64,000 nt of DNA from Streptomyces sp. NBC_00335 (GTDB taxonomy: Bacteria; Actinomycetota; Actinomycetes; Streptomycetales; Streptomycetaceae): positions 248,001-312,000 of the forward strand of contig NZ_CP108006.1 in NCBI RefSeq assembly GCF_036127095.1, given 5' to 3'. The notes under the pieces were generated by a model, which saw only the letters and a list, made by a program, of their open reading frames with translations, ran no database searches and had not been told where the DNA came from. The translations under genes were made by a program, and so were the position numbers. Each line of letters begins with the position of its first letter. Positions within the stretch are counted from its first letter, which is position 1. Shown one piece after another: positions 50,903-54,472 of this stretch.

Positions 50903-50926
50903 TCCGCTCCGGGCAGCCGGGATCAG
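50899..50926. terminator. Bidirectional hairpin holding two stop codons
   Basis: CTGATCC and GGATCAG form the outer stem, with CCGG-GCAG-CCGG as inner stem. The cyanase TGA (50900-50902) is in the left arm and the TGA of the convergent zinc-finger gene (50923-50925, reversed) in the right arm. Confidence 0.6.
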
Positions 50927-51276
50927 CGGTGCAGCCGGCGGGTCCAGTCCTCGGGCACCCGGCCCGACGGGCCCGGGGCCGGTTGGTCGGACGGGTGGCC
51001 GGACGGTGGGGTCAGCTCGGGGCCGGTCTCGTACAGCTCGTCGGCCGCGAAGTCCCAGAACCAGTCCTCGCCCGGTTCGTAGCTCTGTACCACCGGGTGC
51101 CCGGTGGATTTCCAGTGCCCGGTGGCGTGCTGGGCGGGCGAGGAGTCGCAGCAGCCGATGTGGCCGCACTGGGCGCAGCGCCGCAGGTGGAACCACCAGC
51201 CGCCGACCGCATCGCAATCGGCGCAGCCGCTACCGGAGGGCGGGACGCTCGGGTCGACTCCGTCGATGGCGGTCAT
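50923..51276 (-). CDS. UBP-type zinc finger protein
   Basis: This 117-residue protein has a UBP/ZnF-type zinc finger: CADC (18-21), then CAQCGHIGCCD, an H in SSPAQHATGHWKSTGHPV, and a Trp/Phe-rich tail EDWFWDFAADELYE. Eukaryotic UBP fingers bind the C-terminal end of ubiquitin; bacterial ones have no known partner. ATG 51276 overlaps the stop of the histidine kinase gene (ATGA), so it is the last of a coupled three-gene operon. The Pro/Ser-rich C terminus looks disordered. Confidence 0.82.
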   Translation of the reverse strand: MTAIDGVDPSVPPSGSGCADCDAVGGWWFHLRRCAQCGHIGCCDSSPAQHATGHWKSTGHPVVQSYEPGEDWFWDFAADELYETGPELTPPSGHPSDQPAPGPSGRVPEDWTRRLHR

Positions 51277-52799
51277 ACGGGCTCCTCGGTCTCGGTCTCG
51301 GTCTCGGTCTCGGTCTCGGTAACGGCATCGGCATCGGCATCGGCATCGGCATCGGCATCGGCATCAGGTTCCGCGGCGGTCAGCGGCAGCAGCACCTGGA
51401 AGCGGGTGTCCCCCGGGACCGACTCGACCTGGAGGCTGCCGTGGTGCTTGTTGACCACGATCCGCCAGGAGATGTCCAGACCGAGACCGGTGCCCTCGCC
51501 GACGGGTTTGGTGGTGAAGAAGGGGTCGAAGATGCGGCTGCGGATCTCGGACGGGATGCCGGGCCCGGTGTCGCGGAACTCCACGAGCAGCCGGTCGCCC
51601 GTCCGGGCCGTGTGGACGGTCAGCGTGCCCTCGCGGTCGGTGCTGCTTATGGCGAACACGGCGTTGTCGATGAGGTTGGTCCACACCTGGTTGAGTTCCG
51701 CGGGGTAGGCCGGCACGTCCGGGACGGAGCGGTCGTACTCCTTGACCACCCGGATGCGGGGGCCGATCTTGCCGGAGAGCATCAGCAGGGTGCTGTCGAG
51801 GAGTTCGTGGACGTCGACGACCCGGTGCGGGGCCCGGTCGAGCTGCGAGTACTGCTTGGCGGCGTCCACGAGGTGGGAGATGCGGGTGGTGGAGTCGTCG
51901 ATCTCGTCCATCAACAGCTCGGTCTCGACCGTGTAGTTGAGCCAGCCGATGGCCGACGGCAGGAGGTCCTCGGCGACGCTCGACGCGACCTGCTCCAGCC
52001 AGTCGGTGTCCAGGCCGGCCTGGACGAAGACCGGAGCGACCCGCCAGCCCTCGGGGAAGCCGTGGTCCTCCAGCCAGTCGGCGATCTCGTCCTCCCGGTC
52101 GGAGGCTTCGAGGGGGCTCAACGCGGGCGCCTTGGCGACGCGTTCGACGGTGCGTTCCTGGATCTCGATGAGTTCGGCGATCGCCTCGCGGGGGTAGTTC
52201 CCCTGGGAGATGTGGGCCAGTTTGTGCCGCATCTTGCCCACGCGTTCGCGCAGGGTGGCCGTGGCCCGGACGGCCGCCGCGGCCGGGTTGTTGAGCTCGT
52301 GGGTGAGGCCCGCGGACAAGGAGCCCAGCGCGAGAAGCCGTTCGCGCTGGCCGATGACCTGCTGGGTGCTCCTGGCGCCGAAGAAGAGGCCCTCCAGCAG
52401 GTGCGCGGCCATCGGGAACCATTCCCGCATGACGTCCGAGAAGGACTGCGCGGGCAGGACGAAGAACCTCGTCGGCTCGGTCACCCGCATCGAGTTGTTG
52501 TAGGTCTGCTGGACGCGGTCGCCCAGGTAGGCCTGCATGGCGCCCGCGTACACCCCGCGCTGCGAGGTCCGGCCGACCTCCACCTCGTCGCCGCCGACCC
52601 TGCGGGACAGGACGACGGTGCCCTCGATCATCACGTAGAAGCAGGTGGCGGGATCGCCCTCGGTGTACACGGGGCCGGTGTCGAACCGCTCCACGCGGCC
52701 CTCGGCGCAGAGCCGCCCGAGCTGCTCCGGGGTGAGCTTCTCGAAGAGGAAGAGCGAGCCGATCTCCTGCGGGGAGCAGGGCATCGCCTGCCCGCTCAC
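51273..52799 (-). CDS. cNMP-binding sensor histidine kinase
   Basis: This 508-residue protein begins with a cyclic-nucleotide-binding-like beta barrel (about 15-130), followed by a DHp helix with phospho-acceptor His167 (GLTHELNNPAAAA) and an ATPase domain (NLIDNAVFAI, DTGPGIP, FTTKPVGEGTGLGL). No membrane segment is seen, so it senses an internal signal. Start GTG 52799 overlaps the upstream stop (GTGA). The C terminus has an Asp-Ala run and a Thr-Glu run encoded by hexamer repeats. Its partner is very likely the REC domain of the upstream gene. Confidence 0.9.
   Translation of the reverse strand: MSGQAMPCSPQEIGSLFLFEKLTPEQLGRLCAEGRVERFDTGPVYTEGDPATCFYVMIEGTVVLSRRVGGDEVEVGRTSQRGVYAGAMQAYLGDRVQQTYNNSMRVTEPTRFFVLPAQSFSDVMREWFPMAAHLLEGLFFGARSTQQVIGQRERLLALGSLSAGLTHELNNPAAAAVRATATLRERVGKMRHKLAHISQGNYPREAIAELIEIQERTVERVAKAPALSPLEASDREDEIADWLEDHGFPEGWRVAPVFVQAGLDTDWLEQVASSVAEDLLPSAIGWLNYTVETELLMDEIDDSTTRISHLVDAAKQYSQLDRAPHRVVDVHELLDSTLLMLSGKIGPRIRVVKEYDRSVPDVPAYPAELNQVWTNLIDNAVFAISSTDREGTLTVHTARTGDRLLVEFRDTGPGIPSEIRSRIFDPFFTTKPVGEGTGLGLDISWRIVVNKHHGSLQVESVPGDTRFQVLLPLTAAEPDADADADADADADAVTETETETETETEEPV
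51285..51365. repeat. Two adjacent hexanucleotide repeats
   Basis: CTCGGT occurs six times (51285-51320) and GGCATC seven times (51324-51365), coding a Thr-Glu and an Asp-Ala run at the C terminus of the histidine kinase. Being multiples of three, copy changes keep the frame but alter length. Confidence 0.9.
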
Positions 52800-54472
52800 G
52801 ACTCCTCCAGGTACCGGTGGACGAGCATCACGGCCATGGCTCCCTCTCCGACGGCTGATGCGACCCGCTTCGCGGACCGGGCGCGCGCGTCGCCCGCCAC
52901 GAACACGCCGGGCACGCTGGTCTCCAGGTGGTAGGGCGGGCGGTCCAGCTCCCATTCGGCCGGGGGGCGCCCGTCCGGGGTGAGGTCCGGCCCGGCCAGG
53001 ATGAAGCCGTGGTCGTCGCGCAGCACCGTACCGTCCAGCCAGTCGGTGAGCGGGGCCGCGCCGATGAACACGAACATCCACTGGGTGTCGACGAGTTCGG
53101 TCGCGCCGGTGTCCACGTCGCGCAGGGTGAGCTGCTCCAGGTGGCCGTCGCCGTGCGCCGATTCGACGGTGGTGCGGGTGCGCACCGTGATGTTGGGCAT
53201 CTCCTCGATCTGCTGGATCAGGTAGTACGACATGGACGCGGCCAGGGACTGCCCGCGCACCAGGAGCGTCACCGATTTCGCGCCCCGGGCGAGGTACATG
53301 GCGGCTTGCCCGGCCGAGTTGGCGCCGCCGACCACGTACACGTCCTGTTCCAGGCAGGAGGAGGCCTCGGTGAGCGAGGAGCCGTAGTACACGCCGCGGC
53401 CGGTGAGGCCGTCGCAGCCCGACGCCCCGAGCTGGCGGTAGGTGACGCCGGTGGCCAGGATGATGCTCCGCGCGCCGATCGCCGAGCCGTCGGAGAAGCG
53501 GACGAGGCGGGCCGCGCCGTTGACCTCCAGTCCGGTGACCTCGCGTGCGGTGAGGATCTCGGCGCCGAAGCGGCCGGCCTGGCGGCGGGCGCGTTCGGTG
53601 AGCTGGGATCCGGACACGCCGTCCGGGAAGCCGAGGTAGTTCTCGATGCGGGAGCTCTGCCCGGCCTGTCCGCCGGTCGCGGACCGCTCGACCAGTACGG
53701 TGCGCAGCCCCTCGGAGGCCCCGTACAGCGCGGAGCCGAGACCGGCGGGGCCGCCGCCGATCACGACGAGGTCGTAGAAGTCGGCCGTCGGTGTGGTCGC
53801 GAGGCCCACGTGGGCGGCGAGGTCGGGTGCGTCCGGCTCGATCAGTACGGTGCCGCCGGGGGTGATCACCACGGGCAGTCGCTGTCCGTCGGCCCCGGCC
53901 GCCCGCAGGAGCCGTCGCCCCTCCGGCTCCTCGCAGGAGTACCAGCGGTACGGGACCTGGTTGCGGGCCAGGAACTCCCGGACGGCCGACGAGGGGGCCG
54001 ACCAGCGGTGTCCGATCACCTTGGTGGCGGGCACGGGCCGGTGGTCGCCGGTGCGCCAGGCGGTGAGGAGGTCGTCCACGACCGGGTAGAGCTTCTCCTC
54101 GGGCGGGTCCCACGGTTTGAGGAGGTAGTGGTCCAGGTCGACGACGTTGATCGCGTCGATCGCCGCGTTGGTGTCGGCGTAGGCGGTCAGCAGGACGCGG
54201 CGCGCGCCCGGGTACACGGTGATGGCTTCTTCGAGGAACTCGATGCCGTTCATCTGCGGCATGCGGTAGTCGGCGAGGATCACCGCCACCAGGTCGCCGC
54301 GGAGCTTCAGCTCGCGCAGTGCCTCCAGCGCGGACTCGCCGGATTCGGCCCGCACGATCCGGTAACCGGAGCCGTAGCGCCGCCGCAGGTCTCGGGCGAT
54401 GGCCCGGGACACTCCCGGGTCGTCGTCCACGGTCAGGATCACGGTCCGTGCCGTGTCGGCGACCTCTGTCAT
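52796..54472 (-). CDS. Response regulator fused to a thioredoxin reductase-like enzyme
   Basis: This 558-residue fusion has an N-terminal REC domain (about 8-130) with acidic Asp16/Asp17, phospho-acceptor Asp68 in ILADYRM and Lys119 in LLKPW. A glutaredoxin-like segment without Cys (about 150-215) follows. The rest is a thioredoxin-reductase fold: VIGGGPAGLGSALYG for FAD, VVGGANSAGQAAMY for NAD(P)H, and VFVAGDARARS. The redox CxxC is absent; the region reads YYGSSLTEASSC. ATG 54472 follows GGGAG. It heads a coupled operon with the kinase, suggesting phosphorylation controls its activity. Confidence 0.9.
   Translation of the reverse strand: MTEVADTARTVILTVDDDPGVSRAIARDLRRRYGSGYRIVRAESGESALEALRELKLRGDLVAVILADYRMPQMNGIEFLEEAITVYPGARRVLLTAYADTNAAIDAINVVDLDHYLLKPWDPPEEKLYPVVDDLLTAWRTGDHRPVPATKVIGHRWSAPSSAVREFLARNQVPYRWYSCEEPEGRRLLRAAGADGQRLPVVITPGGTVLIEPDAPDLAAHVGLATTPTADFYDLVVIGGGPAGLGSALYGASEGLRTVLVERSATGGQAGQSSRIENYLGFPDGVSGSQLTERARRQAGRFGAEILTAREVTGLEVNGAARLVRFSDGSAIGARSIILATGVTYRQLGASGCDGLTGRGVYYGSSLTEASSCLEQDVYVVGGANSAGQAAMYLARGAKSVTLLVRGQSLAASMSYYLIQQIEEMPNITVRTRTTVESAHGDGHLEQLTLRDVDTGATELVDTQWMFVFIGAAPLTDWLDGTVLRDDHGFILAGPDLTPDGRPPAEWELDRPPYHLETSVPGVFVAGDARARSAKRVASAVGEGAMAVMLVHRYLEES

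What the first reader, a model, noticed from the sequence alone, without database searches (positions are those of the whole stretch)
50923..54472. Coupled UBP finger, cNMP-binding kinase and REC-thioredoxin reductase: candidate new signalling system
Three genes overlap by four bases each. The reductase lacks the active CxxC and has a Cys-less glutaredoxin-like insert, while its REC domain has intact phosphorylation residues. A kinase with a cyclic-nucleotide-like sensor is present, plus a zinc finger of a type that in eukaryotes recognises ubiquitin tails. Together this suggests phosphorylation-gated flavin enzyme activity on an unknown partner protein.
Basis: partly seen in the sequence, partly recalled or inferred. 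Interest (0 to 1): 0.85.

Follow-up and report, generated by a model that had tools for sequence, protein, structure and literature searches.

The report
Kinase-controlled flavoenzyme with zinc finger
Three overlapping bacterial genes encode a sensor kinase, a flavin enzyme that has lost both of its usual redox centres and is probably switched by that kinase, and a small zinc-finger protein that looks unable to recognise ubiquitin tails in the usual way; a redox signalling system of this general kind was, from memory, predicted in 2011, and I found no experimental test of it.

Summary
On the minus strand of a Streptomyces-like genome lie a REC/glutaredoxin-like/TrxR-like flavoprotein (54472-52796), a CRP-fold histidine kinase (52799-51273) and a zf-UBP protein (51276-50923), each overlapping the next by 4 bp. 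The unit is real: in 80 named actinobacterial loci a kinase follows the reductase in 80 and zf-UBP in 39, while four flanking genes of the window recur in 0 and one in 1. Among 62 reductase loci from 198 genomes, a complete phospho-acceptor set goes with an adjacent kinase (24 of 25; incomplete sets 0 of 16). 57 of 62 show no CxxC in either redox domain (one only partly readable); five loci without regulatory domains keep both. Best reading: the kinase gates an NAD(P)H-flavin protein that is no longer a disulfide reductase, and zf-UBP is a facultative partner of the reductase, found also with cNMP-fused and bare reductases. Ubiquitin-tail reading is weakened (no clamp arginine in 164 proteins). 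The sensor is DNR-like and mostly lacks the cyclic-nucleotide cassette Glu. I recall that Burroughs, Iyer and Aravind (2011) predicted a ZF-UBP cyclic-nucleotide redox system. Function is untested.

The parts
52796..54472 (-). REC / glutaredoxin-like / TrxR-like FAD protein, 558 aa (P0001)
   Evidence: ATG at 54472 preceded by GGAGAG
54101..54439 (-). REC domain, residues 12-124; D16, D17, D68 (54269-54271), T96, K119 intact
53777..54061 (-). glutaredoxin/NrdH-fold insert, residues 138-232; S158-x-x-S161 (53990-54001) in place of CxxC
   Evidence: AF2 model and fold search; residues; Pfam Glutaredoxin hits the matching domain of two CxxC-bearing relatives
52841..53776 (-). TrxR-like FAD/NAD(P) domain, residues 233-544
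   Evidence: Pfam; model and fold search
53372..53383 (-). position of the TrxR CxxC, here Gly364-Ser-Ser-Leu367
   Evidence: alignment; Gly at 364 in 80 of 80 close relatives and no Cys at 367; no CxxC there in 57 of 62 sampled loci
53354..53356 (-). single conserved Cys373 just after the lost CxxC
   Evidence: 80 of 80 close relatives; 28 of 62 in the phylum sample
51273..52799 (-). sensor histidine kinase with CRP/FNR-fold N-terminus, 508 aa (P0002)
52425..52670 (-). cNMP_binding-fold sensor, residues 44-125, nearest solved relative DNR
52299..52301 (-). predicted phospho-acceptor His167 (THELNNP)
   Evidence: 83 of 83 kinases aligned
51378..51701 (-). HATPase_c, residues 367-474, N and G boxes kept
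50923..51276 (-). zf-UBP protein, 117 aa (P0003)
51034..51225 (-). zf-UBP domain, residues 18-81; C18 C21 C34 C37 C42 C43 H50 H54 H60
   Evidence: each kept in 163 or 164 of 164 aligned proteins
50926..50997 (-). C-terminal tail of the zf-UBP protein with PGPxxRVPx(D/N)W
   Evidence: strict pattern with D in 30 of 39 trio loci; of the other nine, eight have an N or RLP variant and one is cut by its contig end; absent from the four other zf-UBP proteins checked
52796..52799 (-). 4-bp overlap reductase/kinase
   Evidence: -4 in 41 of 80 loci
51273..51276 (-). 4-bp overlap kinase/zf-UBP
   Evidence: -4 in 33 of 39 loci

Best explanation
The three genes encode a two-component system with an enzyme-type response regulator. 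A kinase without a detected extracellular part senses a signal through a CRP/FNR-fold domain that is nearer to the DNR regulator than to a canonical cyclic-nucleotide binder; it autophosphorylates on His167 and passes the phosphate to Asp68 of the REC domain. Phosphorylation alters the attached glutaredoxin-like/TrxR-like flavoprotein, which keeps its FAD and dinucleotide folds but has lost both CxxC centres, so it is not a thioredoxin or glutaredoxin reductase: reduced flavin either passes electrons to an acceptor outside the classical dithiol relay or reports NAD(P)H status. The zf-UBP protein is a facultative partner of this reductase that docks it on a target; it does not read ubiquitin tails in the eukaryotic manner. 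Shown by comparison: gene coupling, intact phosphotransfer residues, going-together of complete receiver and kinase, loss of both CxxC, folds. Inferred: phosphotransfer, electron output, zinc-finger role, signal.
For: Kinase downstream of the reductase on the same strand in 80 of 80 named loci; best kinase within 148 bp in 75, 4-bp overlap in 41. Complete receiver with kinase adjacent in 24 of 25, incomplete receiver with kinase in 0 of 16, Fisher p 1.6e-10 (44 receivers found, 3 truncated ones dropped). D16/D17/D68/T96/K119 in 80 of 80, His167 in 83 of 83. FAD and NAD(P) glycine motifs invariant in 19 diverse reductases. Five sampled loci without regulatory domains keep both CxxC and the other 57 show none; the former branch as sister to the rest (SH-aLRT 99). 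The same core with zf-UBP occurs with a fused cNMP domain and without an input domain. zf-UBP and reductase co-occur in 31 genomes, with 45 and 44 of 198 having each, Fisher p 1.7e-15.
Against: No phosphotransfer, cofactor or electron-transfer data exist here. The genome's second REC-reductase (55% identical) has a complete receiver and no adjacent kinase, only a 36%-identical kinase about 23 kb away on the other strand. Six of the 16 incomplete receivers keep Asp68 and lack only other residues of the set. Complete-receiver-plus-kinase loci are largely one clade (3 changes on the tree), so the Fisher value overstates independence. zf-UBP lies within 2 kb in only 14 of 62 sampled loci. Cys373, in 80 of 80 close relatives, leaves room for a thiol route.
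Confidence: 0.55

Rival explanations
1. Pseudo-enzyme reading: the reductase passes no electrons to a partner. FAD and NAD(P)H are bound as ligands, and phosphorylation plus NAD(P)H occupancy change its shape so that it binds or releases the zf-UBP protein or a target.
Confidence: 0.25
2. Thiol-relay reading: the zf-UBP protein, with its invariant vicinal Cys42-Cys43, is the direct redox substrate, reached through Cys373 of the reductase; the module opens and closes a zinc-thiolate switch.
For: C42 and C43 in 164 of 164 aligned zf-UBP proteins, of which only one is needed for the recalled two-zinc ligand set. Cys373 in 80 of 80 close relatives. In Rhodococcus pyridinivorans trxA, zf-UBP and a cNMP-fused reductase lie in one run.
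Against: In the sample Cys373 occurs in 18 of 25 reductases with a kinase and 10 of 37 without, so it is not a fixed part. 41 of 80 named loci have no zf-UBP found.
Confidence: 0.13
3. Ubiquitin-like tail recognition: the zf-UBP protein binds the free C-terminal tail of an unknown partner as USP5 or HDAC6 do.
For: zf-UBP by Pfam (52.6 bits); weak matches to USP5 and USP13 (E 5.7e-4); aromatic positions kept (W28 164 of 164, W74 155, F/Y76 163).
Against: USP5 CGRR aligns with CGHI, that is Arg221 with His39 (alignment, numbering recalled); on recalled HDAC6 zinc spacing the position is Asp44 or Ser45. None of 164 aligned proteins has Arg at 39, 44 or 45.
Confidence: 0.05
4. Ordinary neighbours: three unrelated genes that happen to overlap.
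For: zf-UBP was not found in 41 of 80 named loci.
Against: Kinase in 80 of 80 and its going-together with a complete receiver, with flanking genes not conserved.
Confidence: 0.02

Closest known systems
Predicted bacterial ZF-UBP / cyclic-nucleotide redox signalling system (Burroughs, Iyer, Aravind 2011, Mol BioSyst 7:2261; abstract recalled, title seen in reference lists, paper not held)
   Same: as recalled: bacterial zf-UBP proteins in a cyclic-nucleotide-dependent redox system
   Different: whether that paper covers the kinase/REC form, the double CxxC loss or the receiver-kinase link could not be read here
Low-molecular-weight thioredoxin reductase TrxB
   Different: no CxxC; extra REC and glutaredoxin-like domains; 214.5 bits against a TIGR01292 cut-off of 343.45
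AhpF and glutaredoxin-TrxR fusions
   Same: thioredoxin-fold domain N-terminal to a TrxR core (architecture of AhpF recalled); top Foldseek hit is AhpF 4o5q; five unnamed proteins of the phylum are fusions with both CxxC (Pfam on two)
   Different: here both CxxC are lost and a REC domain is added
cNMP-fused TrxR-like proteins (named 'cyclic nucleotide-binding domain-containing thioredoxin-disulfide reductase' in plasmid records)
   Same: related core with zf-UBP neighbour in Rhodococcus and Rhizobium
   Different: sensor fused directly instead of acting through a kinase and REC; in the Rhizobium protein cNMP_binding scores 25.4 bits, just under the 27.5 cut-off
Response regulators with a thioredoxin reductase domain (mentioned for archaeal metagenomes in PMC5847659, passages read)
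   Same: REC plus TrxR domain
   Different: no kinase or zf-UBP context in the passages read

Membership tests
Thioredoxin reductase (TrxB) | redox-active CxxC in the NADPH domain | tested here: not met
   Gly-Ser-Ser-Leu at the site; Gly364 in 80 of 80 close relatives; 57 of 62 sampled loci without CxxC
Thioredoxin reductase (TrxB) | FAD and NAD(P) binding folds | tested here: met
Thioredoxin reductase (TrxB) | NCBIfam TIGR01292 cut-off | tested here: not met
   214.5 against 343.45 bits
Glutaredoxin | glutaredoxin fold | tested here: met
   Foldseek alone gives no E-value under 0.001; PF00462 hits the matching domain of relatives L191 and L195
Glutaredoxin | active-site CxxC | tested here: not met
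   S158/S161 here; in 80 close relatives 158 is never Cys and 161 is Cys in 2; Cys at both in 5 of 62 sampled loci, none with REC, cNMP or kinase found
Two-component response regulator | acidic pocket, phospho-Asp, Thr, Lys | tested here: met
   80 of 80 close relatives
Two-component response regulator | phosphotransfer from the paired kinase | not testable with these tools
   genomic pattern only
Histidine kinase | H, N and G boxes | tested here: met
   His167 in 83 of 83, HATPase_c 81 bits; HisKA profile below cut-off
Cyclic-nucleotide-binding domain | cNMP_binding fold by profile | tested here: met
   34.1 bits, cut-off 27.5
Cyclic-nucleotide-binding domain | phosphate-binding-cassette Glu (motif recalled) | tested here: not met
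   Ala87 here; Ala in 78 and Glu in 1 of 83; the stretch aligns with DNR
Cyclic-nucleotide-binding domain | phosphate-binding-cassette Arg (motif recalled) | tested here: inconclusive
   Arg95 here and in 37 of 83, two residues off the spacing I recall
zf-UBP | zinc ligand set | tested here: met
   closest solved chain 2ida, E 7.6e-26
Ubiquitin-tail-binding zf-UBP | Arg that clamps the terminal carboxylate (recalled) | tested here: not met
   no Arg at 39, 44 or 45 in 164 proteins; alignment to USP5
ZF-UBP redox signalling system predicted in 2011 (recalled) | zf-UBP gene beside a TrxR-like gene with a cNMP-fold input | tested here: met
   this locus, with the cNMP fold on the kinase; fused form
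Anti-phage defence | match to PADLOC models | tested here: not met
   0 families for the three proteins

The most novel reading that the evidence does not exclude
A complete glutaredoxin-thioredoxin reductase lost both of its redox centres and was turned into a signalling flavoprotein: its FAD/NAD(P)H state, gated by phosphorylation (kinase plus REC) or by a directly fused CRP-fold sensor, sets the binding of a zf-UBP adaptor that selects targets. This would be a redox-coenzyme-reading response regulator and a non-ubiquitin use of the UBP finger.
Probability: 0.25. Interest if true: 0.78.

Novelty: new member of a known kind. Interest (0 to 1): 0.48.

Why it matters
If the mechanism holds, a response regulator would control a flavin enzyme directly instead of transcription, and a domain known for reading ubiquitin would have a bacterial redox role. 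The natural comparison set (both CxxC kept and no input domain; both lost and controlled by kinase, by a fused sensor or by an incomplete receiver) makes the question of what the CxxC-less core does directly testable.

Tried and rejected
Canonical cyclic-nucleotide binding: not supported by the Glu position; the Arg is inconclusive and a non-canonical mode cannot be excluded. A fixed third gene in place of zf-UBP: predicted genes after the kinase in the 41 loci without it show no common gene; several mycobacterial loci carry two similar genes there (one scanned: Bac_luciferase). Defence system: no PADLOC match. Promoter or terminator: 0 found by the consensus scan, which says little in high-GC actinobacteria. 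Strict link of Cys373 with the kinase: rejected. Literature: searches were too broad or off target; searches gave 0 papers; one search listed 12 of 12, one search listed 20 of 42, one search listed 12 of 108. None of the titles and abstract starts listed describes this trio. Only CC-licensed PMC papers are held, so absence from print is not shown.

Of the 164 zf-UBP proteins aligned, 120 are the best database hits, mostly Streptomyces. The 62-locus sample used cut-off E 1e-60; 44 had a detected receiver and 3 were dropped as truncated (L144, which has a kinase; L161; L186, with no room downstream). L163 and L174 have 539 and 910 bp downstream and were kept. Six of the 16 incomplete receivers keep Asp68 (L156, L167, L172, L174, L175, L179). 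Three further loci (L178, L180, L185) look like decayed receivers by eye and were not counted. For four of the 57 loci without CxxC the glutaredoxin positions were gaps in the alignment; the upstream reading of three shows no CxxC and for L192 that part is not held. L194 ends at the contig edge, so its downstream side is unseen. A kinase hit in L190 was its own cNMP domain and was removed, which corrects the Cys373 counts. In the tree 3 of 62 loci (L192, L194, L186) were left out and 17 of 62 inner branches are weak.
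Full report
What is there. The minus strand at 54472-50923 carries three genes that overlap by four bases each. The first encodes 558 residues: a REC domain (12-124), an insert (138-232) and a TrxR-like FAD/NAD(P) domain (233-544) (insert bounds chosen by me). The second encodes 508 residues: a CRP/FNR-fold domain (44-125) and a histidine kinase core. The third is a 117-residue zf-UBP protein. The genome is Streptomyces-like: the closest database reductase, 97% identical, is from Streptomyces sp. NPDC006487.

Is it a unit? In the best 80 named loci of a genome-collection scan, all with actinobacterial titles, a kinase relative follows the reductase on the same strand in 80 of 80. 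The best-scoring kinase is within 148 bp in 75 and overlaps by 4 bp in 41. Of the other five, two (L105, L112) have a second kinase copy directly adjacent, and in three the best kinase lies about 0.3, 1.3 and 3.9 kb away. zf-UBP follows the kinase in 39 of 80, with the 4-bp overlap in 33 of 39. Among the first 21 loci (20 Streptomyces, one Actinacidiphila) it is 20 of 21; another Streptomyces locus, L103, lacks it. The window's flanking genes tested in the same way give LysR 0, carbonic anhydrase 0, cyanase 0, alpha/beta hydrolase 0, TOPRIM protein 1 of 80. So the kinase-reductase pair is the constant and zf-UBP is facultative.

A less selected sample. In 198 genomes spread over the phylum, 44 have the reductase core (E up to 1e-60, 62 loci) and 45 have zf-UBP; 31 have both (Fisher p 1.7e-15). 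I read all 62 loci with flanks. A receiver was detected in 44, a cNMP domain in 7, neither in 11. After dropping three truncated loci, 25 receivers have the complete phospho-acceptor set and 24 of these have a kinase adjacent; 16 have an incomplete set and none has a kinase. Of these 16, ten lack Asp68 itself and six keep it but lack another residue of the set. The exception among the 25 is the second copy in this very genome, which has zf-UBP upstream and no adjacent kinase. Relatedness is not controlled: receiver-plus-kinase loci need only 3 changes on the tree. zf-UBP lies within 2 kb in 14 of 62 loci: ten with a kinase, one complete receiver without kinase, one incomplete receiver, two cNMP-fused.

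Outside the phylum. REC-reductase plus kinase, with no zf-UBP listed within 7 kb, occurs on Deinococcus aetherius and Nostoc sp. C052 plasmids. zf-UBP next to a cNMP-fused reductase occurs in Rhizobium leguminosarum (the cNMP domain scores 25.4 bits, just under the cut-off of 27.5) and, inside the phylum, in Rhodococcus pyridinivorans, where the run is dnaK, grpE, a J-domain gene, cbpM, clpB, trxA, zf-UBP, reductase. In Paraburkholderia phymatum zf-UBP follows a reductase with no input domain. The reductase core is therefore what zf-UBP goes with, and the input (none, fused cNMP fold, kinase plus REC) is exchangeable.

The kinase. His167 is kept in 83 of 83, with N and G boxes. The sensor's best solved relatives are DNR (E 1.2e-7) and a global nitrogen regulator, 2xgx (E 4.1e-6); DNR is, from memory, a haem-based NO regulator. 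Where I recall the Glu of the cyclic-nucleotide cassette, 78 of 83 have Ala and one has Glu; an Arg occurs two residues off the recalled spacing in 37 of 83. Cys53 (75 of 83) and His133 (81 of 83) are conserved. A redox or gas signal is my guess, not a result.

The zinc finger. Nine Cys/His positions are each kept in 163 or 164 of 164, which fits a recalled two-zinc site plus one extra Cys in the invariant C42-C43 pair. The closest solved chain is 2ida, named hypothetical protein (E 7.6e-26; bacterial origin recalled); USP5 and USP13 follow at 5.7e-4. None of the 164 has Arg at positions 39, 44 or 45. Trio members carry a C-terminal tail, PGPxxRVPx(D/N)W, in its strict D form in 30 of 39, in a variant in eight, and one is cut by its contig; the Rhodococcus, Rhizobium and Oscillatoria proteins and this genome's second-copy zf-UBP lack it.

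What is known. I recall the abstract of Burroughs, Iyer and Aravind 2011 as stating that bacterial ZF-UBP domains are part of a novel cyclic nucleotide-dependent redox signalling system; the title was seen in reference lists, the paper was not held. PMC5847659 mentions response regulators with a thioredoxin reductase domain in archaeal metagenomes (passage). PMC2602986 lists zf-UBP among conserved mini-proteins of bacteria and archaea (passages). No functional study of the trio was seen in the search listings.

Verdict. A real, widespread and coherent signalling module, correctly spotted. Two-component control of the flavoenzyme is well supported by comparison; the electron output and the zinc-finger role remain inference; the ubiquitin-tail and cyclic-nucleotide readings are weakened; the general idea is probably not new. 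What this work adds is the link between a complete receiver and an adjacent kinase, the joint absence of both CxxC centres against relatives without input domains that keep both, and the finding that zf-UBP goes with the reductase, not with the kinase.

Noticed in passing
window 51285-51365: The kinase gene ends in two perfect hexanucleotide arrays (6.0 and 7.2 copies) that encode acidic (TE) and (DA) dipeptide repeats, just before the overlap with zf-UBP; copy-number changes would keep the frame.
   Followed up: partly
L005:6751-8795 (genome C1 about 7.08 Mb): Second copy: zf-UBP directly upstream of a REC-reductase (55% identical) with complete receiver but no adjacent kinase; a kinase relative (36%) lies about 23 kb away on the other strand.
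   Followed up: partly
window 48694-50902: LysR regulator, carbonic anhydrase and cyanase genes next to the trio look like an ordinary cyanate-detoxification cluster (role recalled).
   Followed up: no
window 54399-55403: Plus-strand frame with an OLD-like TOPRIM domain (28.9 bits) whose longest form overlaps the start of the reductase gene; the true start is probably further in.
   Followed up: no
L105:14557-16289, L085, L116, L119: In several mycobacterial loci two similar genes follow the kinase where zf-UBP sits in Streptomyces; the one scanned is Bac_luciferase.
   Followed up: partly
L131:1-8687: Rhodococcus pyridinivorans plasmid: zf-UBP and cNMP-fused reductase follow a dnaK-grpE-clpB-trxA run, hinting at protein quality control.
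   Followed up: no
L133:8614-11580: In Paraburkholderia phymatum a large Clp-ATPase-like gene (by eye) ends convergently behind the reductase and zf-UBP.
   Followed up: no
L135:4201-6234: Deinococcus gene annotated as cation:proton antiporter with a C-terminal zf-UBP match.
   Followed up: no
L129:12334-13563 and L130:10142-11317: Genes annotated as low temperature requirement protein A near the kinase in Deinococcus aetherius (two genes between) and directly behind it in Nostoc sp. C052 (Pfam LtrA for the Nostoc one).
   Followed up: no
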